Below, piece by piece: positions 1-24,279 of a DNA stretch of 64,000 nt. Made by a program: the position numbers and the translations under genes. The DNA comes from a virus. The stretch's first letter is position 1, and each line of letters begins with the position of its first letter. The notes under the pieces were generated by a model. That model was not told where the DNA came from. It saw only the letters and a list, made by a program, of their open reading frames with translations, and did not search any database. The stretch spans positions 1 to 64,000 of the IMG/VR virus record IMGVR_UViG_3300017605_000706; one strand, given 5' to 3'.

Positions 1-1
1 G

Positions 2-337
2 CTTGACGCAGATCTGTACGACGTCGACACGAATCAACGCGTTGCTTCGGGTAGACTGATTGACCTCGTGATGAATTATTTTCACACGAGCGTGGCTGGT
101 ACGTATATCCTTGTACTTGATCCGGCTTGCGCTGAGATCGACCGTCTCACGGAAGAGAACAAGCTCCTCTGGGAAGAGCTGAATCTCAAGCGGCCGCTGG
201 CCGAGATCATGTTCAGCGATTCGATGCGTGCCTGGTTGGAGCGCGAGGCTCCCCGAGAAGTTCACCTGTTCATGGCCATGCGCGAGAAGCTGCGCGCGTA
301 CGACAAGGCGCGCGGCGCAGATTCCGACGAGGAGTGA
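2..337 (+). CDS. Hypothetical protein, 5' end cut by window edge
   Basis: The frame is open from base 2, so the true start lies upstream; in-frame GTG (68) and ATG (71) are internal candidates only. The C-terminal half is charged and helical (a LTEENKLLWEEL stretch suggests a short coiled coil) and ends in acidic residues. No family recognised. GGAG inside its last codons serves as the ribosome binding site of the next gene. Confidence 0.6.
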   Translation, partial: LDADLYDVDTNQRVASGRLIDLVMNYFHTSVAGTYILVLDPACAEIDRLTEENKLLWEELNLKRPLAEIMFSDSMRAWLEREAPREVHLFMAMREKLRAYDKARGADSDEE

Positions 338-342
338 AAAAG

Positions 343-648
343 ATGACCGATACCACGATCGACGAATTGCTCTCGCGTTCGCCCCAATACGTGCGCGAAA
401 TGTACGAAGCCCTCAAGAAGGGAAACGTTTCACGCATGGAAGAGATCTACACCGTAGATCTCGCTCGGCGCCAGTTGCGGTCCGATCGGCTCGCCGATCT
501 TGAAGAAAAAGTAGCCGAATTTTGTGGCGTGTTGATCGCGCGACTCAGAGCTGCAGGTCAAGATCATAAATCTGATCACTACGCGCCAGTGCTTACGCGG
601 TTGTCTGACGTGGTAAGAATGATCCGCAATTCTCGTGAAGGGTTCTGA
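343..648 (+). CDS. Small charged hypothetical protein (101 aa)
   Basis: I chose ATG 343 because GGAG at 331-334 sits 8 bases upstream; a GTG at 334 overlapping the previous stop (GTGA) is the alternative. The protein is mainly helical with many Arg/Glu and no membrane segment. It follows the previous gene by 5 bases, so the two are probably co-transcribed. Function unknown. Confidence 0.7.
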   Translation: MTDTTIDELLSRSPQYVREMYEALKKGNVSRMEEIYTVDLARRQLRSDRLADLEEKVAEFCGVLIARLRAAGQDHKSDHYAPVLTRLSDVVRMIRNSREGF

Positions 649-651
649 ACC

Positions 652-1704
652 ATGGGCCGCAGGCTTTACCGAGTCCCTCTTGACTTTTCCTGGCCTCTCA
701 ACAAGACGTGGCAGGGCTTCCTCAACCCGCACTACGGCGAGTGCCACAAGTGCGTCGCCTGTGACGGCTCGGGCTACAGCCCCGAGGCCAAGCTATTCCG
801 CGATCAGTGGTACGGCAACGCGCCGTTCGATCCGGTCGCGTACGGCGCCAAGCTCTTGGCCGCCGACCACCCGAAGATCCGCGCGCTTGCTGTACGCAAC
901 GTCAAGAACGCGCCCGAGTACTACTTGACGCCTGCCGAACGTCGCGCTGAGAGAGACGCCCTCGCTCGAGCGAGCGCTGATCTCGAAGCGCTGCACAAGG
1001 ATCGCACCCTCGATCAGCTCAAGGCAGAACTTGACGCGCCTGCAGGTATCGAAGATCTGGAGCAGCCAGGCCTTGCGCGTTTCAGTGTTTATCGTGAGGC
1101 AGCGGTAAAGCGTGAGCAGCAGCGCCTCCTCGAGATGTGTTTCAGGAACCACTGGAGCAATAACCTGATCCAGGCCGACGTCGATGCCCTGGTCAAGGCA
1201 GATCGCCTTTACGAGTTCACACGTCGTCCTCGCAATGACGCTCAGCGCGCTGAGCTTGAGGCGTCAGGTAACCACTGGCTGTCGGAGTGGAACGGCTACA
1301 CGCCTACCGCCGAAGAGGTCAACGAGTGGTCCCTGGATGGGTTGGCGCACGACGGCATCAACGCAAACGTCTGCATCGAAGCGCGCTGCGAGCGAGAAGG
1401 CGTCCCCGATACGTGCCCCGTCTGTAACGGCAATGGCGAGCATTGGACCAGTCCTGAAGCCGAAGCGATCGCCGAGGCGTGGGAGCCTCAAGATCCGCCC
1501 AAGGGCGACGGCTACCAGCTCTGGGAGACGACCAGCGAAGGCTCGCCCATCTCGCCCGTGTTCGAGACTCTCGAAGCACTCTGTGACTACGCGGCTGAGT
1601 ACTGCACGACGTTTGGCAGCTTCACGGCTACCGTCGACGAGTGGCGCCAGATGCTCGACGCTGACTTTGTTCACGCCAAGCGCGGCAACGCGATTTTCAT
1701 GTGA
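652..1704 (+). CDS. Phage protein with two DnaJ-type zinc motifs (350 aa)
   Basis: Two Cys motifs of the DnaJ central-domain style are visible: CHKCVACDGSGYSPEA near residues 31-46 and CPVCNGNGEHW near 254-264. Each supplies CxxCxGxG-like zinc ligands, far apart in sequence, as if two half-sites pair. The C-terminal third is rich in aromatic and acidic residues. I believe similar proteins occur widely in phages as uncharacterised genes, but that is recollection. No J-domain is present, so it is not a full DnaJ. Starts 3 bases after the previous stop. Confidence 0.8.
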   Translation: MGRRLYRVPLDFSWPLNKTWQGFLNPHYGECHKCVACDGSGYSPEAKLFRDQWYGNAPFDPVAYGAKLLAADHPKIRALAVRNVKNAPEYYLTPAERRAERDALARASADLEALHKDRTLDQLKAELDAPAGIEDLEQPGLARFSVYREAAVKREQQRLLEMCFRNHWSNNLIQADVDALVKADRLYEFTRRPRNDAQRAELEASGNHWLSEWNGYTPTAEEVNEWSLDGLAHDGINANVCIEARCEREGVPDTCPVCNGNGEHWTSPEAEAIAEAWEPQDPPKGDGYQLWETTSEGSPISPVFETLEALCDYAAEYCTTFGSFTATVDEWRQMLDADFVHAKRGNAIFM

Positions 1705-1877
1705 AGCGGCGTGATCTTACTATCTGGACGAAGTTCCGTTACATATACGAGAATAATCGCGTAGGCGGCTTCGTCTGGATTGTCGACTCTGATTACGACT
1801 GGTCGACGCAAGAGAATCAGGGATCGACTGGCTGGGTGGCCGCGAAACTGGATCAAGACGTTATTGAGGAGCCTTAG
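1701..1877 (+). CDS. Short hypothetical protein (58 aa)
   Basis: GTG start overlaps the previous stop (ATGTGA), the coupling used throughout this genome. The product begins MKRRDLTIWTKFRYIYENN, is rich in Trp/Tyr/Asp and lacks a membrane segment. It resembles the N-terminal beta part of the PWEIH proteins (a short aromatic strand-rich domain) but lacks the PWEIH element; the next gene is a family member. Function unknown. Confidence 0.6.
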   Translation: MKRRDLTIWTKFRYIYENNRVGGFVWIVDSDYDWSTQENQGSTGWVAAKLDQDVIEEP

Positions 1878-1880
1878 GCC

Positions 1881-2381
1881 ATGCTGAAGCTGTGTGATTA
1901 CCGACCGGTTGCGTCTACAAAAGACGACGCGTTGGAATTCGGTCGTCTAATCGCGGACAGTAAAAACAAAGGCCTTGATCCTGGGAAGGATCCTGCGTGT
2001 GAAGCTCTTTACAGAAAACTGAATCCTGACTGGTTTCGCAACTGCGACTGCCCCATCTACCGTGGAATTCTGTGTTGCGCCGTGGCAAAGGGCGCTGTAG
2101 AGCTTCGCGCTAAGCGTTTCCAGGCAACTATCGTAGCCGCTGTCATTGTCGGCATAGGTTATCGACCCGAACCGATGAAGCTGCTCATACACTCGACAGA
2201 AAACCTTGAATCTGCTTTGGATTCGGCGTGGCCACAGATCTATGAAGCGGTTCGACACTATCCCAGAACCCTTGGACCGTACAGATCGGTGGACGGAATC
2301 CCGTGGGAAATCCACAATATCAGCGACGCGACTGATCGCAAGAACGCCGTTGAACAGTACCTGAACGAGAAATTACCTTGA
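1881..2381 (+). CDS. PWEIH-family paralogue 1 (166 aa)
   Basis: The C-terminus carries the family signature SVDGIPWEIHNISD followed by a helix ending in the protein's last residues. The N-terminal half contains CDCPIYRGILCC, giving the family's second landmark, Y-R-G at the start of a beta strand. Two extra Cys pairs near YRG are peculiar to this copy. It is among the longest of the 17 paralogues (usual range about 100-168 aa). No membrane segment or signal peptide; probably cytoplasmic. Function unknown. Confidence 0.75.
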   Translation: MLKLCDYRPVASTKDDALEFGRLIADSKNKGLDPGKDPACEALYRKLNPDWFRNCDCPIYRGILCCAVAKGAVELRAKRFQATIVAAVIVGIGYRPEPMKLLIHSTENLESALDSAWPQIYEAVRHYPRTLGPYRSVDGIPWEIHNISDATDRKNAVEQYLNEKLP

Positions 2382-2785
2382 CTACTAAGAGTAACTACAT
2401 CGCAGCTCGCCGCGCCGCGCTTGCCGCTGCGACTCAATACGGCGCAGCTTTGGGGCAGGATCTAGACGCGAACGATCTACACGTCAAGCTCGAAGCCGCC
2501 CAACTGGCGCAGAGAGTGGCGTTCGAGGCGTGGGATCCCACCGCGTTTCGGGTGTTCACTGCGTGGGAGGTTTACGCCGACGCGTACCACGACGCAGCGG
2601 ACACCTTGGAGCCTCTTTCTGTGGATGCGACAGCAGACGAAGTCACTGCCATGATCTCGTTGATCAAGAGTGATCCGAGTGCAGCTGCGGCGCGGCAAAA
2701 GTACGAAGAAGCCGTCGCTGCAGCTGGCGGGCGCACTATCGAAGTGATCCGCGAACTGATGACAACGGAAGACGAAGGTAAGTGA
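2378..2785 (+). CDS. Ala-rich helical hypothetical protein (135 aa)
   Basis: TTG start overlaps the previous stop (TTGA). The protein is almost all alpha-helical, Ala-rich and acidic at the C-terminus, with no Cys. Its stop overlaps the next GTG start. No family recognised. Confidence 0.65.
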   Translation: MTTKSNYIAARRAALAAATQYGAALGQDLDANDLHVKLEAAQLAQRVAFEAWDPTAFRVFTAWEVYADAYHDAADTLEPLSVDATADEVTAMISLIKSDPSAAAARQKYEEAVAAAGGRTIEVIRELMTTEDEGK

Positions 2786-2961
2786 AGCCCTGGAAACGCG
2801 TGGTTCACGCCATTATCGGCTTGGTCTTGATCGGGCGGACCCTCGCGGTGCTGGTCGCCTTAGACCACGGCAACTGGAACGGATCGCGTCAGGATGGTGC
2901 AATCATGCTGCTAGCCATTGCTGTCTGGATCTTGCTCGACCGCAAGAAAGATGTTGAGTGA
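2782..2961 (+). CDS. Small two-helix membrane protein (59 aa)
   Basis: GTG start overlaps the previous stop (GTGA). Two hydrophobic segments are visible, residues about 8-26 and 41-52, separated by a polar loop, with basic residues at the N-terminus and a KK pair at the C-terminus. Holin-like topology is possible, but it lies in an accessory/early block away from the lysis enzymes, so I do not assign a role. Confidence 0.6.
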   Translation: MKPWKRVVHAIIGLVLIGRTLAVLVALDHGNWNGSRQDGAIMLLAIAVWILLDRKKDVE

Positions 2962-4077
2962 ATGCCACACCTGAAGAATTTCATCGCTGAAAACCCGTCC
3001 GACTGGCTCCCCAAGCTCGTCGAGACGTACAAGATCGACGCCGTTACTGCCGGTGACTTGGTCTCGCTCAAGTACGACCAGATCAACTCGCCGATGGCCG
3101 ATCCGATCGTCCAAGAATGCCGTGGAGTGATCGTCCACGTCCCAACCGGCGCCGTGTTGGCGCATCCCTACAACAAGTTCTGGAATCACGGCGAGCACCT
3201 GGCCGCAACGATCGACTGGTCGACTGCGCGCGTTCAAGACAAGCTCGATGGATCCTTGATGATCTTGTACTGGCACCCAGCGAACGGCGCTTGGCAAGTC
3301 GCCTCGAGCGGCAACCCTATCGCAGGCGGGCGTTTGGGCAAGCTCTCTTCGTCGTTTGCCGAAGCCTTCTGGGATACGTGGCGAACCCTGCGCATGACCC
3401 TACCGCGCATTCTGTTTCGGCGCGCTACGCTTATGTTCGAGTTCTGCAGCCCTGAAAACAGGGTTGTCTGCAGGTACCCCACACCGAGGATCGTTCTTCA
3501 CGGCGCTCGTTGGCTCGACGGCGAGCATGAGTTTTCTCGCGGTGACCTTATGGTGCTGGCAGACGAGATCGGCGCAGAGCTAATCCGTGAATGGCGCCTC
3601 AATGACCCTGCACTCGCGCTTCAGGACGCCGCTGCATTGGACCCAACGACACACGAAGGCTTCGTTGTCGTCGATGACTACTTCAACCGAGTCAAGATCA
3701 AGAGCCCGCGCTACGTCGCGCTTCACCACCTCAAGGGCAACGGTGCTGCGACAACTCGTCGAGCGATCGCCCTCTGGAAAGCCGGCGAAGTGGGCGAGCT
3801 GCTCGCGCACTTTCCCGAGCTGGTCCCAGATGTTCAGCCGGTGATCGACACGCTCTCTCTTGCTGCGGAAGCCGCTTACCAGCTTTGGCGTAGCGCCAGC
3901 GAGACGAGCGCTACCCGTAAAGACTTCGCGCTCGCCGTCAAAGACTCGCCTGTCGCGTCGGTCTGTTTCAAGCTGTACTCTCACGAAGCTCCGTCGCTGG
4001 ACGCAGCGCTCAGTATCCTACGAGACCTGAGCCTGGTTACGCTTGAGCAGCTCGTAGAGACTTTGACACGAAAGTAG
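2962..4077 (+). CDS. RNA ligase, T4 Rnl1-like nucleotidyltransferase
   Basis: ATP-dependent ligase of the covalent nucleotidyltransferase superfamily. Visible motifs: ECRGVIV (52-58), NKFWNHGE (71-78), motif I KLDGS (94-98) with Lys94 as the predicted adenylated residue, FEFCSPENRVV (159-169) as motif III/IIIa, EGFVV (232-236) as motif IV, and KIKSPRYV (245-252) as motif V. Length (371 aa) matches T4 Rnl1. The family seals nicked RNA, classically repairing tRNAs cut by host anticodon nucleases. No polynucleotide kinase partner is visible in the window, so ends may be healed by another enzyme or the substrate may differ. Confidence 0.88.
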   Translation: MPHLKNFIAENPSDWLPKLVETYKIDAVTAGDLVSLKYDQINSPMADPIVQECRGVIVHVPTGAVLAHPYNKFWNHGEHLAATIDWSTARVQDKLDGSLMILYWHPANGAWQVASSGNPIAGGRLGKLSSSFAEAFWDTWRTLRMTLPRILFRRATLMFEFCSPENRVVCRYPTPRIVLHGARWLDGEHEFSRGDLMVLADEIGAELIREWRLNDPALALQDAAALDPTTHEGFVVVDDYFNRVKIKSPRYVALHHLKGNGAATTRRAIALWKAGEVGELLAHFPELVPDVQPVIDTLSLAAEAAYQLWRSASETSATRKDFALAVKDSPVASVCFKLYSHEAPSLDAALSILRDLSLVTLEQLVETLTRK

Positions 4078-4081
4078 CCAC

Positions 4082-4864
4082 ATGACCGACGAGGAAATTA
4101 ACAAGTTCGAAGCGCTGCTGAAGGCAGCCACTCCGCAAAAGTGCGTCATCGCAAAAGGCGACCCACCCCGATGCTGTGTTCATGACGTGCTGACAGATTG
4201 GGAGGACGGCGACTGGCGTTGCCCCTACGGCGATACGCGATACTTTATCCCGGAGCGAGATCGGCCGCTACTTCGCACCACCCGTATCTACGGTCCTCGC
4301 CTAATTCAGGAGATCCGACGGCTGCGTAAGCCGTACCAGGAAGCGCTCTCGGCTGTCGCCGATCAGATCTGCGACGCGTCAGCGAAGAAGCTCGTTGAGA
4401 TCACTGCCGAGCGCGACGCCTTGCGTGTCGAGGTTGAACAGCTTCGTGAGGATGAACGGATGCTATTCCCGCATGAACGTCTGGACGTGATGCGGTCCGA
4501 GAACAAGATACTACGCGACGAAGTAGATCGGCTCAAGCACAGCCTAAAGATGGCGCGCTACGACCATGTCAACGACAAGGCGCTCGATACTCAGCGTGAA
4601 CGCTACGAGAAGGCACAAGAAGAGATCGAGACGACGGATAAGCGGCTCGGCGCATACTTCGACGACGCCATTAAGGACATTGACCAACTCCGTCGTGAAC
4701 GCGACGGTGCGTGCGGGCACCTTGCGGCATGTACCGCAGAGCGCGATGCGGCTCGGCAGATCGCACGTGAATTTCATCGCTACGTGCCAAGGCACAACAC
4801 GTCAGACCCAGAGTTCCCGTGCGATTGCGCCGCCTGTGACCCGCCAGACTGGCTAAAAGGCTGA
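4082..4864 (+). CDS. Coiled-coil protein with terminal Cys pairs (260 aa)
   Basis: Begins MTDEEINKFEALLKAATP and ends in CDCAACDPPDWL, both shared with the gene at 5085. The N-terminus has a Cys/His cluster (C20, CC near 30, C47) and the middle (about 105-240) is a long Glu/Arg/Leu-rich coiled coil. Probably an oligomeric scaffold with small zinc-binding ends. A paralogue pair in tandem suggests a local duplication. No known function. Confidence 0.75.
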   Translation: MTDEEINKFEALLKAATPQKCVIAKGDPPRCCVHDVLTDWEDGDWRCPYGDTRYFIPERDRPLLRTTRIYGPRLIQEIRRLRKPYQEALSAVADQICDASAKKLVEITAERDALRVEVEQLREDERMLFPHERLDVMRSENKILRDEVDRLKHSLKMARYDHVNDKALDTQRERYEKAQEEIETTDKRLGAYFDDAIKDIDQLRRERDGACGHLAACTAERDAARQIAREFHRYVPRHNTSDPEFPCDCAACDPPDWLKG

Positions 4865-4871
4865 AAACCAC

Positions 4872-5078
4872 ATGAAAGTATCCGGCGTTAACCATTGGGT
4901 CGGAAAGCCCATTCCGCCTCATCTTCAAGGCCAAGGCCCTTTCGAACTGTCGTTGGAAGACTTCGAGTCATTGACCCTGTACTATGACGTCATGCTTCGG
5001 CGTATCTCAACGCCTGGTGAAGACACCGAGTTTCACATCTTCCTCGACGACAGGGGACGGTCGTTTCGCCAGAGGTAA
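4872..5078 (+). CDS. Small acidic hypothetical protein (68 aa)
   Basis: ATG follows the previous stop by a few bases. Starts MKVSGVNHWVGKPIPPHL and is acidic in the middle. It sits between the two coiled-coil paralogues. The opening resembles MKTDGVNYFVG in the gene at 8049-8492, possibly a shared N-terminal patch. Function unknown. Confidence 0.65.
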   Translation: MKVSGVNHWVGKPIPPHLQGQGPFELSLEDFESLTLYYDVMLRRISTPGEDTEFHIFLDDRGRSFRQR

Positions 5079-5084
5079 AAAACT

Positions 5085-5663
5085 ATGACCGACGAAGAGA
5101 TCAACAAGCTCGAGGCGTTGGTTGCCGCGGCGACGCCGACTGAACGAGAAGACTGCGGCCCACCTCTGTGCCCGCGCTGCAAGAGCGAGTGGACGCTCGA
5201 CGCGGGCATGGAAATCCCGGAGCACCGTCATTGCTGGCTGTGCGCGACCGCGGTTCTTGACGAAGCCCTCCCAGCCATGGCAGCTCTGGTCGCCGAGGTG
5301 CGCCGGCTGAGCACGACGCAGTGCCGCGAATGCGGCGCCCGGCTCCTCTTCTCGGCGCGGAAACAGGGTGACGGCCTGTGCGGACCGTGCCACCGCCGCG
5401 CGGCGGGCACCCAGACCGAGGCCGACATCGAGCGCGACGACCTGCGAGCTGAGATCGAGCGGTTGCGAGTCGAGGCCGTTGAAAGTCGAGCCAACGCGAT
5501 CCAGGCCGAGGCAGTATTTGACGAGGCGGCCAGGAGACTGGAGGCCGAGCGCGCCGAAGCTAGACGGATCGCGCGGCAGTACCACGCTGCCTGGGAGGCC
5601 GAGACTGCGCTGTTCCCGCCGCGCATCGACGGCGGCCCACCAGACTGGCTGGTGAAGCCATGA
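5085..5663 (+). CDS. Coiled-coil protein with zinc ribbons, paralogue of 4082 gene
   Basis: Shares the MTDEEINKLEAL start and the PPDWL ending with the upstream paralogue. Two zinc-ribbon-like clusters are visible: CPRCKSEW (about 28-35) with HCWLC (49-53), then CRECGARLLF (about 83-92) with CGPCHRR (102-108). A Glu/Arg coiled coil covers about 118-170. A role in binding nucleic acid or protein through the ribbons is inferred only. Confidence 0.75.
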   Translation: MTDEEINKLEALVAAATPTEREDCGPPLCPRCKSEWTLDAGMEIPEHRHCWLCATAVLDEALPAMAALVAEVRRLSTTQCRECGARLLFSARKQGDGLCGPCHRRAAGTQTEADIERDDLRAEIERLRVEAVESRANAIQAEAVFDEAARRLEAERAEARRIARQYHAAWEAETALFPPRIDGGPPDWLVKP

Positions 5664-5809
5664 ACAAGAAACCCAAGTCTCGAGAGCAAGTCGCCGCAGA
5701 TAAGCTGCTGAAGCTGGGAGCTACTCATAGCATCGTCGGCTGGCGGCAAGACGGCATCTTTCTCGCCAAGTCAGCCACCGAAGCGCTGCGTATTCTTAAC
5801 GGAAATTAG
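5660..5809 (+). CDS. Short hypothetical protein (49 aa)
   Basis: ATGA overlap with the previous stop. Product MNKKPKSREQVAADKLLKLG plus a short beta-like tail, ending shortly before the next ATG. Basic N-terminal helix; no recognised family. Confidence 0.55.
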   Translation: MNKKPKSREQVAADKLLKLGATHSIVGWRQDGIFLAKSATEALRILNGN

Positions 5810-5811
5810 CC

Positions 5812-6027
5812 ATGACAATCGACATCGAGATCACGGCAAAGAAGTGCTACGACGCCTATCGGGATCAGCGCATCAACCACGAAGAAGACGGCGCCGACCC
5901 CTACGAAGTAGGCCTCCCCGACTGGAACGATCTCCCTGATTACAAGCGGGACCGCTTCCGAGCCGCTGCACGCGCGGCCTACGCAGCCATCGCCAAGCAG
6001 ATTATGCAGATCGCGAACGAGCCCTAG
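5812..6027 (+). CDS. Small hypothetical protein (71 aa)
   Basis: Helical, with LPDWNDLPDYKRDRFRAAAR in the middle, a pattern I associate with small uncharacterised phage proteins. It is the last plus-strand gene before the strand switch and overlaps by 4 bases the end of the convergent gene at 6024. Confidence 0.7.
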   Translation: MTIDIEITAKKCYDAYRDQRINHEEDGADPYEVGLPDWNDLPDYKRDRFRAAARAAYAAIAKQIMQIANEP

Positions 6028-6245
6028 GCAGCCTCGTCCAGCCAAACGATCTGTGTATCACCACCGTGTCCGTGCACGGCCTCAAGCTCTTTCACCGACG
6101 TCCAGATGCTCACGCATCGATAGGGCGTCATCCATGTTACGGCGCACATACCGTTAGAGAACTCGCAGCCTTCGGCGACCACGCCCGTCCCGCTAACGCC
6201 GCTGTGGTCCTTTTCGCGCTGCAGGTGAAATCGTCGGATGTTCAT
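6024..6245 (-). CDS. Conserved phage-type small protein (73 aa)
   Basis: Contains RRFHLQREKDHSGVSGTG, VVAEGCEF and VHGHGGDTQIVWLD, a pattern I recall from many phage and bacterial small proteins of unknown function (beta-rich, about 70-80 aa). Converges with the gene at 5812. Function unknown, but the pattern makes it a confident gene. Confidence 0.8.
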   Translation of the reverse strand: MNIRRFHLQREKDHSGVSGTGVVAEGCEFSNGMCAVTWMTPYRCVSIWTSVKELEAVHGHGGDTQIVWLDEAA

Positions 6246-6269
6246 AGATTGCTTTTCCAGCCGCGCAGT

Positions 6270-6659
6270 CTATCGAATTCGATGCGCCTTGTATACGTCT
6301 GTCGCGATCTTGCGCGTTTCAGGATCATCGATGTCGTGGATCTCCCACGGCAAGTCGTCGAACGGCTCAATTTGATCCGCGTCTGAGTACGTAAGCCGCC
6401 ACGGGATCCCGTCCGCGTTGCGCCAGTTCGCGTCTGCCCATTCAGTCAGCTCAAACACGCTCATCTCGGGCGCTGACACTAGCCGAGGCTCCTCGAACAA
6501 GCACACCCAATGGGGATAAAGATCGCGACGGCGCGTTCTTAGGAGCGGCAGATACCCCAATATGACCACGTGATTCGGCGACCGCACCGTACCGATACGA
6601 ACGCCTCGGTACTTATACGTCACACGTAAGCGGTCGGTTAAACACGGTGCGTGTGCCAT
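6270..6659 (-). CDS. PWEIH-family paralogue 2, with duplicated motif (129 aa)
   Basis: The N-terminal landmark is YKYRGVRIG. The C-terminal region has two PW elements in series, ADGIPWRLTY and then FDDLPWEIHDIDD, as if the signature had been partly duplicated. Ends with a short helix. Its start overlaps the end of the upstream paralogue by about 20 bases. First of three consecutive family members on the minus strand. Confidence 0.72.
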   Translation of the reverse strand: MAHAPCLTDRLRVTYKYRGVRIGTVRSPNHVVILGYLPLLRTRRRDLYPHWVCLFEEPRLVSAPEMSVFELTEWADANWRNADGIPWRLTYSDADQIEPFDDLPWEIHDIDDPETRKIATDVYKAHRIR

Positions 6660-6970
6660 GCGGCCATCGCGATATTTCGCGCCTCTTTGTCAACGATCCG
6701 ATGGATCTCCCACGGAACTCCGTCCGCAGAAATCACCCCCTCTAACCATTCAGGGCTATCGAACCCGTACTTCTGAAGATGCGCATCAAGTTCCCTGTAA
6801 GCGTTCTCAGCAAACTCAGGGCTGTTCATCTTGTCAAGTAGCAGATCGGGAAGCTCCGTGTACTGGTCCTCGTGTACGCTCGTGGCGATGATCCGTGTCC
6901 ACCCACTGCGATGGACGTACAGTGTGAAGCCTCTGTAGACCAGCGTCCTAGCGGTTGAGTTGGAAAGCAC
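6638..6970 (-). CDS. PWEIH-family paralogue 3 (110 aa)
   Basis: Landmarks LVYRGFTLYVHRSGW and SADGVPWEIHRIVD. I chose GTG 6970, which gives a short overlap with the upstream gene like that of its neighbours; a longer frame reaches an ATG at 7051 but would overlap the upstream paralogue by more than 100 bases. The region between the landmarks is helical and acidic. Function unknown. Confidence 0.68.
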   Translation of the reverse strand: MLSNSTARTLVYRGFTLYVHRSGWTRIIATSVHEDQYTELPDLLLDKMNSPEFAENAYRELDAHLQKYGFDSPEWLEGVISADGVPWEIHRIVDKEARNIAMAAWHTHRV

Positions 6971-7256
6971 TGATCGCTTCTTGTCGTGCTTCGGGGTCGT
7001 CGATATCGTGAAGCTCCCATGGGATACCGTCAACGGCGCGTAACGAAACACTTCGACGCCGCGCGTTCTTCACGTTCCCCCAACGCGCGTCGATCACTTC
7101 TCGCATGTCGGCTGGTAGGTCGCTGCCAGAAAGCGTGAACGACGCCAGCAGAACGCGCGTGCTACGATCCGAGTAGGCGTACAGATCTAGAAGCGTCACG
7201 TCCTCTTCGAACCAGACGCCTCGATATTCGCCCTGCTGCAGCCCCTGCATGTTCAC
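6948..7256 (-). CDS. PWEIH-family paralogue 4 (102 aa)
   Basis: Landmarks EYRGVWFEED and AVDGIPWELHDIDDPEAR. GTG at 7256 has AAGG six bases upstream; ATG at 7250 is nearly as good. The compact copy shows the minimal architecture: YRG strand, short linker, PWE(I/L)H, Ala-rich helix. Confidence 0.72.
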   Translation of the reverse strand: MNMQGLQQGEYRGVWFEEDVTLLDLYAYSDRSTRVLLASFTLSGSDLPADMREVIDARWGNVKNARRRSVSLRAVDGIPWELHDIDDPEARQEAISAFQLNR

Positions 7257-7264
7257 GAGGGGCC

Positions 7265-7537
7265 TTACTTCACCCAGGCGCGCGTCTTACCTTCAGCCAG
7301 GAGTTTCTCTCGACGCTTCTCGCGCCAAGCGTCGCCGAGTGCGGGATGCGGATCGAGGACGTCCGCGTCTAGGTTGGAATGGCCATTGTCAGAATCCGCA
7401 TCGTAGAAGTATCCATGAAAATCGGTCACTGCTTGCAGCGCGGGCGAGCCGCAGCAGCCACACCCGGCGATCGCGATCCCGTACTTGGCCGACAACGCAG
7501 TCAGCTCTTTCATGAACTCGTCGAAATTAGCGTTCAT
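7265..7537 (-). CDS. Conserved phage-type small Cys protein (90 aa)
   Basis: Contains LTALSAKYGIAIAGCGCCGS, a pattern (…KYGI.I.GCGCCGSP) I recall from small uncharacterised phage proteins. The GCGCCGSP cluster may bind metal. Its start region overlaps the end of the next upstream gene by 4 bases. Role unknown. Confidence 0.75.
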   Translation of the reverse strand: MNANFDEFMKELTALSAKYGIAIAGCGCCGSPALQAVTDFHGYFYDADSDNGHSNLDADVLDPHPALGDAWREKRREKLLAEGKTRAWVK

Positions 7538-7755
7538 TGGCCTGCCTTTCTGAACACGCGCAGCCCGTGGCGCACGAGAGCCACCTCGTCTTCACGCCAG
7601 TCGCCATCATGAATCGCGTCTTCGGCCATGACGCGAAGAAGCGCCATCGGCGTACCGCCGATCAGACGATCCGTAAGATCTTCACCGTACCTGACGACGG
7701 CAAGCGCGCGCAAAGACGAACGCGCAGATTCGATTTCTTCTTGGGTAGGCTTCAT
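7534..7755 (-). CDS. Small hypothetical protein (73 aa)
   Basis: Helical and charged, starting MKPTQEEIESARSSLRAL; stop overlaps the start of the downstream gene (TCAT on the plus strand). No family recognised. Confidence 0.65.
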   Translation of the reverse strand: MKPTQEEIESARSSLRALAVVRYGEDLTDRLIGGTPMALLRVMAEDAIHDGDWREDEVALVRHGLRVFRKAGQ

Positions 7756-7760
7756 AGTTC

Positions 7761-8045
7761 CTACTTTGACGGCTTCGCGCCTGAAATGTTCAGCGCGATC
7801 TTGTCCTCAAGCTCCGGCGGGTTTTCCACCGGTTGCCGTCCCCACCAGCGCCCGATGCTCGCGCAGAGCATTGTACGTGCCTTGGCTGTCGGCAACATCT
7901 GGTAGATATCGTATCGCCACGAAACCTCTTCGGGCTTGGCGTTCTTGTGCTTGCTATTGCCGTGACGTAGCCGGCGAAGAAGGCTGGCAACCTCGTCGGG
8001 GTGCCTCGTTAGCGCCTCTCGATACGTCAAGTCACAGAGCTTCAT
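7761..8045 (-). CDS. Basic hypothetical protein (94 aa)
   Basis: Starts MKLCDLTYREALTRHPDEVA; basic and helical, with SIGRWWGRQP in the middle. Part of the minus-strand accessory operon. No recognised domain. Confidence 0.65.
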   Translation of the reverse strand: MKLCDLTYREALTRHPDEVASLLRRLRHGNSKHKNAKPEEVSWRYDIYQMLPTAKARTMLCASIGRWWGRQPVENPPELEDKIALNISGAKPSK

Positions 8046-8048
8046 GCA

Positions 8049-8492
8049 TCACACTACAACACCTAGCGCCGTCTCCGCGAATTTACGAATCAAGGCGCGT
8101 TTCTTCTTGCAGTCTTTGACGTAGAAATCTCTGTTGGCGTCATTGTCCCAGCAAGACGGATTGGCGATGAAATCTGCGAGGGAGGCCGCGCGATCACGGA
8201 CGCGTCTGAGAATCAGACGCTGCTCTCCTCGCCATAGCATGTCGGCCTCGAGCGCCTTGTGCAGATATGGGACCGGCCCTAGCTTGCACATAGAAGCCAG
8301 GACGCGTTTCCGCGTCTTCGCGTCGCTTGACACAGACAACGCGTCTTCTAACTGGGCACGGCTCTTCTTGAGAGTCTTGGCCCACTTCTCAACGGCCTCA
8401 CACCACAAGGAAGACGCGATCGAATTGATCATCAACGCGTCACCGACGTCCTTGGGGACGCCGACAAAGTAGTTAACGCCGTCGGTTTTCAT
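8049..8492 (-). CDS. Helical basic hypothetical protein (147 aa)
   Basis: Helical and Lys/Arg-rich, starting MKTDGVNYFVGVPKDVGDAL. Overlaps the upstream gene end by 4 bases (ATGA). No recognised domain; the nearby genes are equally anonymous. Confidence 0.65.
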   Translation of the reverse strand: MKTDGVNYFVGVPKDVGDALMINSIASSLWCEAVEKWAKTLKKSRAQLEDALSVSSDAKTRKRVLASMCKLGPVPYLHKALEADMLWRGEQRLILRRVRDRAASLADFIANPSCWDNDANRDFYVKDCKKKRALIRKFAETALGVVV

Positions 8493-8920
8493 GCGACGTC
8501 CAGAGACTTCTGCTGCCTGGCACGAAGCTTAGCTGCTTCTGAGACAGCGGTGATAGCGTCCCCGAGATCAGGATAGTCGGCGGCCAACTCACACACACGA
8601 TTCAGGTCTCTTTTCGAGAGTGTCCCGCCGATCATGTAGGTGATCACCTCAAGCGCCCATCCGGGCTCTTGACCGGTCTCCTTGCACACAGAAGCCCAGA
8701 CTTTGCCCAGCGTACTGGTCGCCCTATTCAAGCGGTATGCTACCACGTTAGGAATATCTGGCAGGTCTCGGCAACCGCTCGCCACGAGCGCCTGCTCAAG
8801 GCGCTCGTGCGCGCCTGATACGTCGTTTGCCTTACCTGCGTCTCGGCGTTTAAGTTCACGCGCCAGGGCACGCGCAGCAGCAGTTACAGGATCCAGCGGC
8901 ATCTTTTTGGGTCGTGGCAT
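8489..8920 (-). CDS. Helical hypothetical protein (143 aa)
   Basis: Basic N-terminus MPRPKKMPLDP, then two long helices. A 146-base structured gap lies upstream. No recognised domain. Confidence 0.65.
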   Translation of the reverse strand: MPRPKKMPLDPVTAAARALARELKRRDAGKANDVSGAHERLEQALVASGCRDLPDIPNVVAYRLNRATSTLGKVWASVCKETGQEPGWALEVITYMIGGTLSKRDLNRVCELAADYPDLGDAITAVSEAAKLRARQQKSLDVA

Positions 8921-8941
8921 GATCCTACGACGGCCCGCCCG

Positions 8942-9012
8942 CCCACAAATTCAAAAACTGTGTGGGGGCGTCCTCTCAGGAATCAGGGCCCTGACTCGAC
9001 TAAGAGGACGCC
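8942..9012. repeat. Nested inverted repeats in a gap between minus-strand genes
   Basis: Three symmetric elements lie in one gap: CCCACA (8942-8947) with TGTGGG (8961-8966); a perfect 10-bp arm GGCGTCCTCT (8967-8976) with AGAGGACGCC (9003-9012); and inside the latter a perfect 12-bp palindrome TCAGGGCCCTGA (8983-8994). On the minus strand the 10-bp hairpin is followed about 10 bases later by TTTTT, so it could end transcription from 9067-9429 or act as an attenuator or protein site. The gap holds no gene. Confidence 0.6.
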
Positions 9013-9066
9013 ATGGGCGGCTTGTCCAGCCAAGACCCACCGCCATGCGAAGATCATAGCATGGAT

Positions 9067-9429
9067 CTACTTACCGCGCAAGCGATTTGCTTTCTCACAC
9101 TCGTTCGCGAAAGCCCTGAGATCAATAGCCATTTCACGCGTAGCGCCGTCGTTGACGCCCGCGATGGCATCGATCATCGCCGCCCACGCCCTGACCGCGT
9201 CGACAGGCCACGCCGAGATCTCAGCGCCCAGATTCGCCACAGCGTGCGCCATCGCAGGCACTGACGCGCGGATCAGACCCTTGAGATCTACCGTCTCTGG
9301 CGGCAGCTGGCACGCCCTCGCAAGGTCAAGATCCGCCGCTAGCTTGGCCGAGCGCTGGCGTTCCTCAGCCAGCGAGGCTCGCATCGCATCGTAGTCGTCC
9401 AGAGAAAGTGAAATTACCGGGCTACCCAT
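9067..9429 (-). CDS. Hypothetical protein (120 aa)
   Basis: Acidic, helical N-terminus (LDDYDAMRASLAEERQRSA) and Ala-rich helices. A 6-bp hairpin lies right at its start. No recognised family. Confidence 0.65.
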   Translation of the reverse strand: MGSPVISLSLDDYDAMRASLAEERQRSAKLAADLDLARACQLPPETVDLKGLIRASVPAMAHAVANLGAEISAWPVDAVRAWAAMIDAIAGVNDGATREMAIDLRAFANECEKANRLRGK

Positions 9430-9430
9430 A

Positions 9431-9450
9431 CTCTGTAGCTAACCACAGAG
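9431..9450. promoter_or_regulatory. Hairpin abutting the start codon of the 9067-9429 gene
   Basis: CTCTGT (9431-9436) and ACAGAG (9445-9450) form a 6-bp stem with an 8-base loop. On the minus strand it ends one base before the ATG at 9429 and includes the only GAG that could serve as ribosome binding site. It could therefore mask translation. Short stem, so modest confidence. Confidence 0.4.
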
Positions 9451-9460
9451 GTATGATCCG

Positions 9461-9796
9461 TCAATTATCCGATCCGAGAACCTTAACTGCGCTCAGGCAC
9501 GCATGGCACGTGCACTTGCCCGACAGCGCCGTTCTCTTGTGATGCGCGTCGATCATATCACTGAGCGCACCGCGGATCTCCTCCGTCTTGTCACGCAGGA
9601 GATCTCCTAGCAGCTCCGTGATCGCGCTGATCGCGCGGGATACCTCACGCTCGTCGCTGTCTCGACTGAACACGGGCTCGCACAGTGCGATGATCGACTC
9701 CACCGGCCAATCAGCGCTGACCTCGATCTTCTCAGCTTGACGGTCTAGCCGCATGACCATAAGAGGCTCGTAGAATCTTCTAGGGTTACCCGACAT
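9461..9796 (-). CDS. Hypothetical protein with CxCxxC tail (111 aa)
   Basis: ATG 9796 chosen because GGAG lies 5 bases upstream on the minus strand; a longer frame to 9865 would overlap the upstream gene. The C-terminus has KCTCHACLSAV, three Cys and a His that could bind zinc. The middle is helical and acidic. Confidence 0.7.
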   Translation of the reverse strand: MSGNPRRFYEPLMVMRLDRQAEKIEVSADWPVESIIALCEPVFSRDSDEREVSRAISAITELLGDLLRDKTEEIRGALSDMIDAHHKRTALSGKCTCHACLSAVKVLGSDN

Positions 9797-9809
9797 CGCA
9801 ACTCCTATA

Positions 9810-10070
9810 CTATAGGGTCGGCCTGACACTAGACGCACGTACCGACTGAGAATTCGGCGCGTCAATCGATACCCCCGATCGGCCAGGGCTGATCGCGAAG
9901 ATGTCGACCTGATCGATCCCTGCTCCGATCAGCTCAACGAGTTGCACGATATCCGTAAGCGCCACTGAACCTGTGACTACGATCACCGACCGTTCGGAGC
10001 CGCACTCCACAGATGTGGCTGCCGGTCCCCAGATGTCCCTTACGACAGTCAACAGGTTACGGCTCGTCAT
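9810..10070 (-). CDS. Hypothetical protein (86 aa)
   Basis: Mixed alpha/beta composition with GPAATSVECGSERSVIVVTG; ends in a Ser/Arg-rich tail. Lies directly downstream of the replicative helicase gene (10148-12094) and shares its strand. No recognised family. Confidence 0.6.
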   Translation of the reverse strand: MTSRNLLTVVRDIWGPAATSVECGSERSVIVVTGSVALTDIVQLVELIGAGIDQVDIFAISPGRSGVSIDAPNSQSVRASSVRPTL

Positions 10071-10147
10071 ACGTTTTACGAGCGTAGCAGGGGTTACAGG
10101 GATTACACCATAGCCGCTGTAGGGTGAACCCTGTTAACTGCCTTCAG

Positions 10148-12094
10148 TTACTCGACAGGCTCAATCTTATAGTAGAAAACAGACCCCTTGACCTCCGTTT
10201 CAACCATGAACGAGGTCGTAATGCTCGCTTCTTTTAGTTTGCGATGCATCGTGATCGGCTGCTTGACAAAGTGTCGACCGTTAGCAGTCGCGACCTCGCT
10301 AAGCTCCTTGTACAGGTCACTCTGACTGATCAAACGACCTACGTTACTTGTCGTGTTCAGCCAGAGAGCGAGTACGTCCTTGATGACGTCACCCTCGGCG
10401 ACGAACGCCTCACGTTCACGCTGACAGGCCTCGAGCATCGAGTCGATCTCGTCGGCGGTCCGGCCGAGTACGTGACCGATCACGTGCGCCATGACGGTAA
10501 AGTCCGCCATACGGTGCTTGCGATTCCGCACAGCAGCCGATGCTGCGATCTTGCCCTCGCGTAGGACTGCCACGATCCTGTTTAGGTACCAAAGCCACTC
10601 ACCAAAGAGCTGGCCGCGCTTATGCCCAACCTCTTGCTCGAGGTCGCTCGATCGCCCGAAGTCGTTCTCACGGCGATCCAGTTTGAGCAGAAGACATCGG
10701 TCCGCGACATCAGGACGCCTGAATGTCACCGGCGATCTCGAGCTGACGGCGAGAAAAGCCGTCGGCTTGATCTTCACGATCTCGTCGTCGGTGTAGAGCT
10801 TCCTCTTCTGCCACTCACCGCTCGTCGTGTACGCGCAGATCGCGTCCTGAAGCCACGGTATGTACGTGTCGATGTTGTCCATGAAGCCGATCGGCGTTCG
10901 CGCGATCTGAACACTGAACTCGCGCTCGTCACCTTTGCCGATGATCAGCGCCGATCGGCGACCATGGAGCGCCATCTGAACGAGCTGTAGCGCCGTCGAC
11001 TTACCTGATCCTTGGGGGCCGTCGACGAGCAGAATAGGCTTCGCCGGAAACAGATCCGGGAACGCGAGCGCGAAGATCCAGATTGAAAATAGCAACCTCT
11101 GTTGGTGCCCTGCCATGCCGCCACCGGTCGTCTTGGCCCAGCACAGATCCGTCAAGAACGGCAAGAGCACGCCGTTCGGGCCCACCACCACGTCTTCTTC
11201 CTTGGGCGCGACGCCGTCATCATCGTCGGCGAACAGCATCTCTTGTCCGTTGGGGATGATCTCGAGGCCTTCATCCTCTCCAAGACTGCCTTTGATCTTC
11301 CAAAGAGATCCGTCGTACCGATTCACGTAGAGCGTCTTGCGATCTTCGCTCCACGCGACAAACCGTCTTACACTTCTCTCCTTGCCGAAGCACGTGCAGA
11401 AAGCCTGCATTTGGTTGACGATCGCACCGCCGTACCCGCGACCGTCCGACGCATTCAAATTATAGTGATACCAAAGGTGCGCAGCGAAGCGCCGATTACG
11501 ACTGTCGATCGGTACGACCGTGTTCGTACGACCGAAGACGATATAGGGTAGTCCGTTAGGCGCCACGCGCAGAAATCGCGCCCCTGTCTGCTGCTCGTTC
11601 TGCAACACCATGCGAAAGATAGACTGCGCGATCGCTTCCTTGTTGCCTTGCAAACGCTTGTCGTAGCGAATGCCGTCGATACCGAACCGCGTGATCGCCG
11701 CGTTGGTTCCCGGCCCGGCGACCGTGACCGCTGGATCCGGCGCCAACGCTGCAGCGGCTTCTTGCGCCTGCAAAACCTCCGTGACGATCGTCAGAACATC
11801 GGGCGGCGCAGGTGGCGGCGGGATCGGCTCGAGGTCCTCGACCAACGCGAGCGGAGGCCTTGACTGGCCAAAGCCCGGCGCAGGCGTCGGCGTGAGGTAG
11901 ATCCTCTTCAGGATCTCCGCGTCACGCGCTCCTACGAAGACAGTTGTACCGGTTGGGTCCGAAAGAAATACGGCGTCGTCTACCTTACCTTTTTTCTTCT
12001 TACCGCCACCGGCGCTACTATCGCCTGCGTCCTCGTAGTCTGGATCTACATCCAGGTACTCGTCGGACCAGACTAGATCATCAGACATCGCCAT
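10148..12094 (-). CDS. P-loop replicative helicase/ATPase (648 aa)
   Basis: Likely the replication-fork helicase. Walker A is GPQGSGKST (359-367). A Walker B-like GFMDNIDTY follows, then a sensor-type LAVSSRSPVTFRRPDVADR with a candidate arginine finger. The 130-residue N-terminus is low-complexity (acidic, Lys patch, then Pro-rich), followed by a domain about 140-320 with no recognised catalytic motif, which may replace a primase or origin-binding domain. The layout resembles phage and plasmid D5/SF3-like or DUF927-type helicases, which I cannot separate by eye. Divergent from the SNF2 gene at 12129 with only 34 bases between. Confidence 0.78.
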   Translation of the reverse strand: MAMSDDLVWSDEYLDVDPDYEDAGDSSAGGGKKKKGKVDDAVFLSDPTGTTVFVGARDAEILKRIYLTPTPAPGFGQSRPPLALVEDLEPIPPPPAPPDVLTIVTEVLQAQEAAAALAPDPAVTVAGPGTNAAITRFGIDGIRYDKRLQGNKEAIAQSIFRMVLQNEQQTGARFLRVAPNGLPYIVFGRTNTVVPIDSRNRRFAAHLWYHYNLNASDGRGYGGAIVNQMQAFCTCFGKERSVRRFVAWSEDRKTLYVNRYDGSLWKIKGSLGEDEGLEIIPNGQEMLFADDDDGVAPKEEDVVVGPNGVLLPFLTDLCWAKTTGGGMAGHQQRLLFSIWIFALAFPDLFPAKPILLVDGPQGSGKSTALQLVQMALHGRRSALIIGKGDEREFSVQIARTPIGFMDNIDTYIPWLQDAICAYTTSGEWQKRKLYTDDEIVKIKPTAFLAVSSRSPVTFRRPDVADRCLLLKLDRRENDFGRSSDLEQEVGHKRGQLFGEWLWYLNRIVAVLREGKIAASAAVRNRKHRMADFTVMAHVIGHVLGRTADEIDSMLEACQREREAFVAEGDVIKDVLALWLNTTSNVGRLISQSDLYKELSEVATANGRHFVKQPITMHRKLKEASITTSFMVETEVKGSVFYYKIEPVE

Positions 12095-12128
12095 CGTTCA
12101 GAGGGATCGAGTAAGTACCAAAACTGAC

Positions 12129-13739
12129 GTGCTACCCAAGGCAGCTAAACCAGACTGGTTCATCATTCCACGCAGCTGGTCGCGAGAGATCGACACGTTG
12201 CGTAAGAGCCCGCAGATTCAGTTCCTGTCGGAGTCCAAGGCCGCAGTCCATCTTTCGCACCTTCCGCTGATAACGCATCGGTCTGAAGTCCAGCAGACGA
12301 TCGCAGCGTTGGGCGCTCCCCAGATCAGCCGGACCGTTAGCCAGGACAACCTTTCTACTACAACGCTGCGACACCTGGAAGCGCTCTCGGCGGCAGGCAT
12401 CACGCCGAGGGCTCATCAGCTCGATATCCCGCGATTCGTTGCAACCCGACGCGGCGCCCTCATAGGTGACATGATGAGGACCGGCAAGACGGCCTCGAGC
12501 CTTCTGTGCCACGATCCCAGCGCTGGTAAGCTACTCGTCGTCGCGCCCTTGCCCACGCGCGAGGGCTGGCTGCGCTGGATCAACGCGATGTTCCCCAACG
12601 CTAGCACGTTCGTTGCGAAGGGCAAAGAGTACGATCCCGCTGTCTCAGAAGCAGACATCGTCTGGATCAACTACGACGTCTTGTCGCACTGGCGCGCTCT
12701 CGTAACGCTGCCTATCGGACTCGCCATCTTCGACGAAGCTCACCTGCTCTCGAATCACACCGCGCAGCGATCCTCGTCCGCGCTCATGCTCGCGACGAAA
12801 GCGCAGAAGACGCTGCTCCTGTCGGGCACGCCGCTTTGGAACAAGCCCGTCAACCTCTGGACGTTGTGCAACCTGATCGCTCCCGGCGCCTTCGGTTCGT
12901 ACGACGACTTCGGCAGTCGCTATGGCGCGCCAGAGCAGACCATGTACGGCCGCGTCTACAAGGGTGTCTCGAACGCTGAGGAACTCGAGGCGCGTTTCAG
13001 CTCGATCCAGATTGCCCGCTCATGGAAAGACGTCTCCGACAACGTTCCCGCGATCGAGCGCAGCACTGAGACCGTTCCGCTCTCGCAAGCTCAGCTCGAT
13101 CAGATAGACCGCGCTGTCTTCTCGGTAAAAGCCGCCCCTGGTAAGGGCGTCAAGGCCTTCCTAGCTGAGCTTGCACGATACCGCAAAGCCTTGGGGAAAG
13201 TCAAGGCGAAGACGGCGATCGAGTGGCTTCAGTGTGTCAACGAGCCCGTCGTCGTCTGGGCGTGGCACAAGGAAGTCGCCAAGGAGATCGCCGAAGGCTG
13301 CCACGGCTATCTAGTCACCGGCGACACGCCTCCTGAAGAGCGCGCGACGATCTTCGAAGCATGGGCCAAAGAGAACAGGCCTCTTGTCATGAGCATCTCA
13401 GTTGGCCAAGTTGGCTTGGATCTATCTCATGCGCGCCTTGCGCTCTTCTGCGAAGTTGACTGGACCCCGGCTGTTCTGGCTCAGACTGAAATGCGCGTGT
13501 TTAGCCCAGTGCGTCCGATGGCTGTCGTATACTTGGTCGCGGACCACCCATCTGAGCAGACTATGATCAAAGCCCTCTGGCGTAAGATAGACAACGCGCA
13601 GCAAATCGGCGTAGCTGCATCAGAAGGCGCGATCGACGTCCTCTGTGAAGCCTTCGGGATCGGTTACTCGAACTTCGATAAGCTTGCTGCCGCAGGCAAT
13701 CTTGATCGCCTCATGGCCGACGCGCTTAGCCATCAATGA
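12129..13739 (+). CDS. SNF2-type helicase/translocase (536 aa)
   Basis: Superfamily 2 SNF2-like ATPase acting on double-stranded DNA. Motif I is GDMMRTGKT (113-121, usually GDEMGLGKT); motif II IFDEAHLL; motif III LLLSGTPLWNKP followed by the SNF2-typical NLWTLCNLIAPG. Motif VI is degenerate (QTEMRVFSPVRP, not QAxDRxHRIGQ). GTG start at 12129. A second, more canonical SNF2 protein is encoded at 25867; the two are distant. In phages such proteins sit with replication or recombination genes, as here. Confidence 0.85.
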   Translation: MLPKAAKPDWFIIPRSWSREIDTLRKSPQIQFLSESKAAVHLSHLPLITHRSEVQQTIAALGAPQISRTVSQDNLSTTTLRHLEALSAAGITPRAHQLDIPRFVATRRGALIGDMMRTGKTASSLLCHDPSAGKLLVVAPLPTREGWLRWINAMFPNASTFVAKGKEYDPAVSEADIVWINYDVLSHWRALVTLPIGLAIFDEAHLLSNHTAQRSSSALMLATKAQKTLLLSGTPLWNKPVNLWTLCNLIAPGAFGSYDDFGSRYGAPEQTMYGRVYKGVSNAEELEARFSSIQIARSWKDVSDNVPAIERSTETVPLSQAQLDQIDRAVFSVKAAPGKGVKAFLAELARYRKALGKVKAKTAIEWLQCVNEPVVVWAWHKEVAKEIAEGCHGYLVTGDTPPEERATIFEAWAKENRPLVMSISVGQVGLDLSHARLALFCEVDWTPAVLAQTEMRVFSPVRPMAVVYLVADHPSEQTMIKALWRKIDNAQQIGVAASEGAIDVLCEAFGIGYSNFDKLAAAGNLDRLMADALSHQ

Positions 13740-14167
13740 ACTGGGGGCCTTATCTAGCTGCTCGCGCAGCACAAGCGTTTCCGGGCATTCTGCTTTTGCG
13801 CGCTGTCAAAGACAGAGATGGTTCTATCTACTTGGACAAGACAACGATCTGGGCTGATTTTATGGCCTATCGGGGTCTCGTCTGGGCGTTCTCGGGTGGC
13901 GTAACGCAAAATCCATATCGTGCTGGCTACGGTCTAGGCCGCCACAAAGACCTGTTGGTGATTACGCGAAGAGTGCTGAGCCGTCCTGTCTGTAACCACT
14001 CAGACGCGGTCCATGTCGTTGACAGTTACTACCCCGAGCTAGCTGCTTGGCTTGGTACGATCAACGTACGTTCCGTAGACAGCCTTCCGTTCGAGTTGCA
14101 CGCGATCGACGATCTCGCAGCGCGTCGTGCGGCAGGGAAGGCTTACGTAGCGGCTAGCCTCGATTAG
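13736..14167 (+). CDS. PWEIH-family paralogue 5 (143 aa)
   Basis: Landmarks MAYRGLVWAF and SVDSLPFELHAIDD, the latter with Trp replaced by Phe. ATGA overlap with the SNF2 gene suggests translational coupling to it. Converges with the gene at 14154, whose protein also carries a YRG element. Confidence 0.72.
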   Translation: MNWGPYLAARAAQAFPGILLLRAVKDRDGSIYLDKTTIWADFMAYRGLVWAFSGGVTQNPYRAGYGLGRHKDLLVITRRVLSRPVCNHSDAVHVVDSYYPELAAWLGTINVRSVDSLPFELHAIDDLAARRAAGKAYVAASLD

Positions 14168-14936: not shown

Positions 14937-15038
14937 CTATGGACCTAGCGTAACGTCAGATGGTGGTGATACTGCTGGTCCTCGCGTAACGAGAGCCGTC
15001 TAGCCAACGGTTCTTTCTCCGTCGGGAAACGAGTCAGG

Positions 15039-17219: not shown

Positions 17220-17267
17220 CCGTTTTAGCAAAACACTCCAACTGACAAGAGAACTAGAGACCAACAC

Positions 17268-17810: not shown

Positions 17811-17830
17811 TCGAGGCTGGAAGCCGGAAT

Positions 17831-17849: not shown

Positions 17850-17879
17850 TGCGTGCGTCACTTTCAAGGGGAGAGCTGC

Positions 17880-18882: not shown

Positions 18883-18887
18883 ATCCT

Positions 18888-24190: not shown

Positions 24191-24193
24191 GTC

Positions 24194-24257: not shown

Positions 24258-24279
24258 GTATCCAAACAGGAGACTATCC

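What the first reader, a model, noticed from the sequence alone, without database searches (positions are those of the whole stretch)
1..1020. Strong over-representation of GATC
I counted 19 GATC in the first 1,020 bases; about 4 are expected from composition. Enrichment appears to continue across the window. Most phages avoid or ignore GATC; enrichment with a viral Dam suggests a function (methylation marking, self-recognition, or packaging control). GATC is partly due to codon preference for Asp and Ile codons followed by C.
Basis: partly seen in the sequence, partly recalled or inferred. Interest (0 to 1): 0.6.

Follow-up and report, generated by a model that had tools for sequence, protein, structure and literature searches.

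The report
GATC-rich phage, mostly genome signature
This bacterial virus really does contain about three times as many GATC sites as its base composition predicts, but most of that is the ordinary sequence "accent" of GC-rich genomes, and nothing here shows that the virus's own GATC-methylating enzyme causes it or uses it.

Summary
The count is correct: 19 GATC lie in bases 1-1020, 699 in the window and 1,043 in the whole 97.4-kb virus record (10.7/kb). That is 2.9x base composition and 2.0x dinucleotide expectation. Codon usage explains about two thirds of the coding sites, not all (754 seen, 490 expected, z 21). Preserving dinucleotides as well leaves 1.19x (z 9). The excess occurs in all codon phases and outside genes, and is Poisson-uniform, with no clusters.

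The composition baseline is misleading. Random GC-matched viral contigs have a median of 1.65x, and Alphaproteobacteria 2.7x, including genomes with no Dam. The rest of this genome's k-mer profile predicts 1.9x, so only a residual of about 1.5x is unusual (top 3-5% of controls).

The viral Dam is real (TIGR00571, 237 bits). Its link to the enrichment is not supported. The Dam-positive versus control difference is not GATC-specific: 19 of 136 four-letter words differ at p<0.001. It vanishes once dinucleotides are preserved (p=0.69). Dam phages T4 (0.37x), P1 (1.05x) and L039 (0.06x) are not enriched.

Best reading: a genome-signature effect, with an ordinary phage Dam that probably methylates the sites. 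The cause of the residual is unknown.

The parts
1..1020 (.). 19 GATC sites (positions 11,119,136,205,357,444,457,484,496,534,562,574,621,802,829,876,979,1000,1012)
1..64000 (.). 699 GATC sites, spread at about 11 per kb without clusters; the same density continues to 97,432 (1,043 in all)
23190..24029 (+). Dam-family (D12 class) N6-adenine DNA methyltransferase, 279 aa, DPPY motif at residues 189-192; the only D12 gene in the record
22194..22832 (+). thymidylate kinase, upstream neighbour of dam
19208..22027 (+). fusion of a uracil-DNA glycosylase superfamily domain, 3'-5' exonuclease and family A DNA polymerase (939 aa)

Best explanation
The GATC excess is a genome-wide, DNA-level compositional bias of a GC-rich phage, not a set of functional sites. 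About 60% of the log excess follows from the rest of the genome's 4-mer signature (predicted 1.9x, seen 2.9x). That signature is the GA/TC-rich, CC/GG- and TA-poor type; GATC at 2-3x is common in Dam-free, GC-rich Proteobacteria. In genes the bias acts mainly through xxG|ATC and GAT|C codon junctions, on top of a preference for the Ile codon ATC. The remaining 1.2-1.5x is real, but lies within the upper 3-9% of ordinary genomes and has no shown cause. The phage's Dam is a typical phage solitary methyltransferase. It most likely methylates these sites (inferred from family and from mostly conserved recognition residues), so that the density is tolerated by GATC-cutting nucleases. It neither explains the density nor visibly depends on it. 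Shown: counts, nulls, uniformity, panels. Inferred: methylation of the sites and tolerance.
For: Uniform Poisson spacing, with no clusters at 60-2000 bp. Excess in all three codon phases and outside called genes (11.2/kb against 10.5/kb). Random viral contigs at GC 0.53-0.65 have a median of 1.65x and bacteria 1.84x. Alphaproteobacteria have a median of 2.7x. Genomes with no Dam hit reach 2.2-3.3x (G051 Rhodobacteraceae, G055 Bradyrhizobium). Ridge regression on 4-mers that lack GAT/ATC has cross-validated R2 0.68-0.75 and predicts 1.92-1.94x for the phage; 3-5% of controls have a residual as large. The Dam contrast is not GATC-specific and is absent under the dinucleotide-preserving codon null (p=0.69).
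Against: A residual remains. Dinucleotide-preserving codon shuffles still leave 1.19x (z 9.1), the highest of all palindromic 4-mers. Only 1 of 45 Dam-positive viral loci has a signature residual as large as the phage's. GATC ranks 4th of 136 words in the Dam-positive versus control contrast. The host is unknown, so the host's own signature could not be compared.
Confidence: 0.72

Rival explanations
1. The viral Dam drives or uses the enrichment. GATC accumulates because methylated sites mark self DNA, direct strand-specific repair or regulate replication and packaging, so selection or biased repair keeps adding sites.
For: Dam and enrichment occur together. Dam-positive viral loci have a slightly higher GATC residual than controls (median +0.14 against +0.01 log units, p=2e-5, n=45 and 150). 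The phage is near the top of that group. A HIP-methyltransferase link is reported in cyanobacteria (PMC4390886).
Against: 19 of 136 words differ at p<0.001 between the same groups, so the contrast reflects lineage composition. There is no difference under the dinucleotide-preserving null (p=0.69). Dam phages T4 (0.37x), P1 (1.05x) and L039 (0.06x) show that Dam is not sufficient. Equal enrichment occurs in genomes with no Dam hit. There is no clustering. Elhai 2015 reports no general relation between GATC frequency and the number of GATC methyltransferases (PMC4390886).
Confidence: 0.1
2. The phage copies the signature of a particular GATC-rich host (for example an alphaproteobacterial or myxobacterial one), so the whole 2.9x, residual included, is host mimicry.
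For: Alphaproteobacterial and myxococcal loci reach 2.7-4.0x. Several are among the loci with the highest 4-mer correlation to the phage when GATC is left out of the comparison.
Against: The 4-mer correlations are moderate (at most 0.74) and spread over several classes. GANTC is not depleted in the phage (0.90x) as it is in Alphaproteobacteria (median 0.40x). The first-order GATC ratio of 1.98 exceeds 98% of bacterial loci at this GC. No relative of its polymerase was found in 190 alphaproteobacterial genomes, a search without a positive control.
Confidence: 0.3
3. Codon usage alone: preference for ATC (Ile) after G-ending codons and GAT (Asp) before C.
For: Synonymous shuffling reproduces 490 of 754 coding sites (65%); 67% of sites are xxG|ATC.
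Against: Observed is 1.54x the synonymous-shuffle mean (z 20.9), with an excess in all three phases (208 against 115, 39 against 21, 507 against 354) and equal density outside genes. Only 2.7% of viral controls exceed this ratio.
Confidence: 0.05
4. GATC is part of a longer functional element (HIP1 GCGATCGC, CGATCG, a pac-like cluster or an origin cluster).
For: CGATCG is the commonest 6-mer around GATC (122 of 1,043).
Against: Flanks are close to base composition (C before GATC 35%, G after 35%) and HIP1 occurs only 14 times. No scan window from 60 to 2000 bp exceeds random placement.
Confidence: 0.02

Closest known systems
Phage-encoded Dam of T4, P1 and others (TIGR00571 / PF02086, D12 class)
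   Same: Solitary Dam-family adenine methyltransferase on a phage, among DNA-metabolism genes; best solved relative is the GATC enzyme DpnM (2dpm, E 9e-52)
   Different: T4 and P1 are not GATC-enriched (0.37x and 1.05x). This enzyme has R6 where E. coli Dam has K9 and T139 where it has Y138, so exact specificity is unproven
Genome-signature GATC richness of GC-rich Proteobacteria
   Same: GATC at 2-4x base composition without any Dam gene
   Different: The phage's dinucleotide-corrected ratio (1.98) is higher than nearly all panel members
HIP1 and other methyltransferase-linked iterated palindromes of cyanobacteria (PMC4390886)
   Same: An over-represented palindrome holding GATC together with a GATC methyltransferase
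   Different: HIP1 is a highly over-represented 8-mer; in the phage only the 4-mer is enriched and HIP1 is near chance
GATC avoidance by phages of hosts with GATC-cutting enzymes (PMC6286503)
   Same: Concerns selection on GATC numbers in phage genomes
   Different: Opposite direction: all 46 such phages in that study have GATC below expectation

Membership tests
Dam family DNA adenine methyltransferase (TIGR00571, PF02086) | Whole-protein match above curated cut-off | tested here: met
   TIGR00571 237 bits (cut-off 114.85); PF02086 167.7 bits (cut-off 22)
Dam family DNA adenine methyltransferase (TIGR00571, PF02086) | Catalytic DPPY and SAM-binding motif | tested here: met
   DPPY at 189-192 and E31-P-M-C-G35-G conserved in alignment A2
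Dam family DNA adenine methyltransferase (TIGR00571, PF02086) | GATC recognition residues of E. coli Dam (K9, Y119, N120, L122, R124, P134, Y138; roles from memory) | tested here: inconclusive
   N121, R125, N133, P135 kept; F120 and V123 conservative; R6 for K9 and T139 for Y138 differ (positions from the alignment)
Dam family DNA adenine methyltransferase (TIGR00571, PF02086) | Methylates GATC in vivo | not testable with these tools
   needs SMRT or nanopore reads, or a DpnI/DpnII digest
HIP1-type iterated palindrome | A specific 8-mer (GCGATCGC) in great excess | tested here: not met
   14 copies in 97.4 kb, near what CGATCG numbers predict
P1-type pac or origin GATC cluster | Local cluster of GATC sites above random placement | tested here: not met
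   No window from 60 to 2000 bp exceeds the random 95% level; dispersion index 1.03
Genome-signature effect | GATC level predictable from other k-mers and shared by genomes without Dam | tested here: met
   Met in the main: predicted 1.9x against 2.9x seen; Dam-free bacteria 2.2-3.3x; a residual of about 1.5x is not accounted for

The most novel reading that the evidence does not exclude
The 1.2-1.5x residual reflects selection or a repair bias acting through the phage's own Dam, so that GATC sites accumulate genome-wide in some Dam-encoding phages, a viral counterpart of the methyltransferase-linked palindromes of cyanobacteria.
Probability: 0.07. Interest if true: 0.55.

Novelty: new member of a known kind. 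Interest (0 to 1): 0.15.

Why it matters
If Dam really drove GATC accumulation, base-word statistics could reveal what phage methyltransferases do. The controls show how easily that inference goes wrong. A base-composition null suggests a large enrichment, but GC-matched genomes share most of it, and many words unrelated to Dam differ just as strongly between Dam-positive and Dam-negative viruses.

Tried and rejected
Codon usage as full explanation (rejected). HIP1/CGATCG extension. Local clusters for packaging or origin. Viral Dam as cause: first looked positive (p=2e-5 on signature residuals), then failed the negative control over all 136 words and the dinucleotide-preserving null. Relief from GATC avoidance in Dam-positive viruses: no difference in strongly depleted loci (1/45 against 8/172 at GC 0.53-0.70, p=0.69). 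Close relatives: none for the polymerase in IMG/VR, none for the 1-20000 stretch in INPHARED by megablast, none for 40000-50000 among plasmids. Host: 4-mer correlation inconclusive; polymerase not found in 190 alphaproteobacterial genomes. L039 was first suspected of a broken Dam because the fetched range held a stop; the stop is simply the gene's end and the gene is intact. The viral and bacterial panels are pattern-sampled fragments, so some controls may belong to Dam-positive viruses (2 of 50 tested carried a D12 gene). No phylogenetically paired Dam-positive/Dam-negative comparison was made.

Full report
Check of the observation. Window 1-1020 holds exactly 19 GATC, against 3.8 from base composition and 13.0 from a second-order Markov chain. 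The window holds 699 and the whole virus record (IMG/VR, 97,432 bp) holds 1,043, i.e. 10.7 per kb: 2.92x base composition, 1.98x first-order and 1.13x second-order expectation. The second-order figure hides the effect because GAT and ATC consist largely of GATC. The six one-mismatch neighbours at the two outer positions stand at only 0.98-1.21x. The first kilobase lies above the genome mean, but not surprisingly so among about 95 windows (P=0.017 each).

Codon nulls. Called genes (my own ORF caller, no annotation) cover 73.5% of the record. They hold 754 GATC: 507 as xxG|ATC, 208 as GAT|C and 39 as xGA|TCx. Shuffling synonymous codons, which keeps proteins and codon usage, gives 490 (ratio 1.54, z 20.9), and every phase is in excess. 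A stricter shuffle that also keeps all dinucleotides across codon junctions gives 633 (ratio 1.19, z 9.1), the largest ratio of any palindromic 4-mer; phase 0 is fixed by construction in this test. Density outside called genes (11.2/kb) is about the same as inside (10.5/kb). So codon usage explains about 65% of coding sites, and the rest is a DNA-level bias.

Distribution. GATC is placed as a Poisson process: dispersion index 1.03 in 1-kb bins, longest gap 641 bp against about 649 expected, and no window of 60-2000 bp above random placement. This gives no support for a packaging site, origin cluster or promoter clusters. Flanking bases are near composition and HIP1 occurs 14 times.

Baselines. 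Two random 15-mer patterns were used to sample viral contigs and one to sample named bacterial and archaeal genomes. At GC 0.53-0.65 the viral median is 1.65x and the bacterial median 1.84x. Alphaproteobacteria reach a median of 2.7x, maximum 4.0x. A Rhodobacteraceae and a Bradyrhizobium genome with no Dam match have 2.2-3.3x over 20-kb stretches. The phage is at about the 96th percentile of viral controls by base composition and above 98% by dinucleotides. A ridge model on 4-mers free of GAT/ATC, trained on controls (a third viral sample added; cross-validated R2 0.68-0.75), predicts 1.92-1.94x for the phage. The residual factor of about 1.5 is matched or exceeded by 3-5% of controls. Against codon nulls, 2.7% of viral controls exceed the phage's synonymous-shuffle ratio and 8.7% its dinucleotide-preserving ratio.

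The viral Dam. Gene 23190-24029 (+) encodes a 279-aa Dam-family enzyme: TIGR00571 237 bits, PF02086 167.7 bits, phrog_56 E 6e-73, best solved relative DpnM (2dpm, E 9e-52). It is the only D12 gene in the record. Alignment positions equivalent to E. coli Dam N120, R124, N132 and P134 are kept, while K9 is Arg and Y138 is Thr (roles of these residues from memory). GATC specificity is therefore likely but not proven.

Does Dam explain the excess? Relatives of the enzyme were collected from IMG/VR. Among high-GC loci, Dam carriers have a slightly higher GATC residual than controls (p=2e-5). The same contrast run on all 136 four-letter words gives p<0.001 for 19 words, and three words score better than GATC. 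Under the dinucleotide-preserving codon null the groups do not differ (p=0.69). The difference therefore looks like lineage composition rather than a Dam effect. Dam is clearly not sufficient: T4 0.37x, P1 1.05x (first 50 kb of each) and viral contig L039, with an intact Dam homologue, 0.06x. Lambda, without Dam, stands at 0.61x. Nor are Dam carriers less often strongly GATC-depleted (1/45 against 8/172, p=0.69).

Literature. Phages of hosts with GATC-cutting enzymes avoid GATC (46 of 46 in PMC6286503), so this phage is not under that pressure or is relieved of it. In cyanobacteria some iterated palindromes co-occur with cognate methyltransferases, but plain GATC frequency shows no general relation to the number of GATC methyltransferases (PMC4390886). 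Sinorhizobial and other alphaproteobacterial phages have been shown to carry GANTC enzymes (PMC5537653). GANTC is not depleted here (0.90x) as it is in Alphaproteobacteria (0.40x), so the host class remains open.

Conclusion. The codon-usage refutation fails. Most of the excess is the expected signature of such a genome, and a moderate residual remains unexplained. The functional reading tied to Dam is not supported, though it is not excluded.

Noticed in passing
L060, L062, L063, L066, L070 (IMG/VR contigs of 101-413 kb): Large viruses with zero GATC, zero CATG, zero CTAG and zero or one AGCT in 14-21 kb (50-80 of each expected), while GTAC, TCGA and TGCA are mostly near normal; L060 and L062 also nearly lack ACGT. 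They carry distant D12 relatives. This multi-palindrome avoidance looks far stronger than the finding I was given.
   Followed up: partly
L039 (IMGVR_UViG_3300032373_001203): Intact Dam homologue (39% identity to the window's) in a GC-0.59 viral contig with only 0.17 GATC per kb (0.06x), although the other palindromes looked at (TCGA, GTAC, CATG) are normal: the opposite of this window.
   Followed up: partly
window 19208-22027: Uracil-DNA glycosylase superfamily domain fused in front of exonuclease and family A polymerase; no close relative in IMG/VR or INPHARED.
   Followed up: partly
window 40179-47419: Nucleotide-sugar and glycosyl-transfer gene group on a virus: a UDP-GlcNAc 2-epimerase-like start and glycosyltransferase-like protein (by eye), a UDP-glucose dehydrogenase and a nucleotide-sugar epimerase (PHROG matches; gene placement by eye).
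   Followed up: no
window 47789-49271: Two adjacent paralogous genes on the minus strand (MPPSSLYDLAILNDGPVHYMIPE... and ...MPPSSLYDIAILGDNPVHYMTPE...) of unknown function.
   Followed up: no
L265 (IMGVR fragment, 8.3 kb): Viral fragment with the strongest GATC excess in the panel (12.6/kb, first-order ratio 3.84) and no D12 gene on the fragment.
   Followed up: partly
window 1-64000: TTAA is strongly depleted (0.22x over the record) and stays depleted (0.48x, z -5.1) under the dinucleotide-preserving codon null.
   Followed up: no
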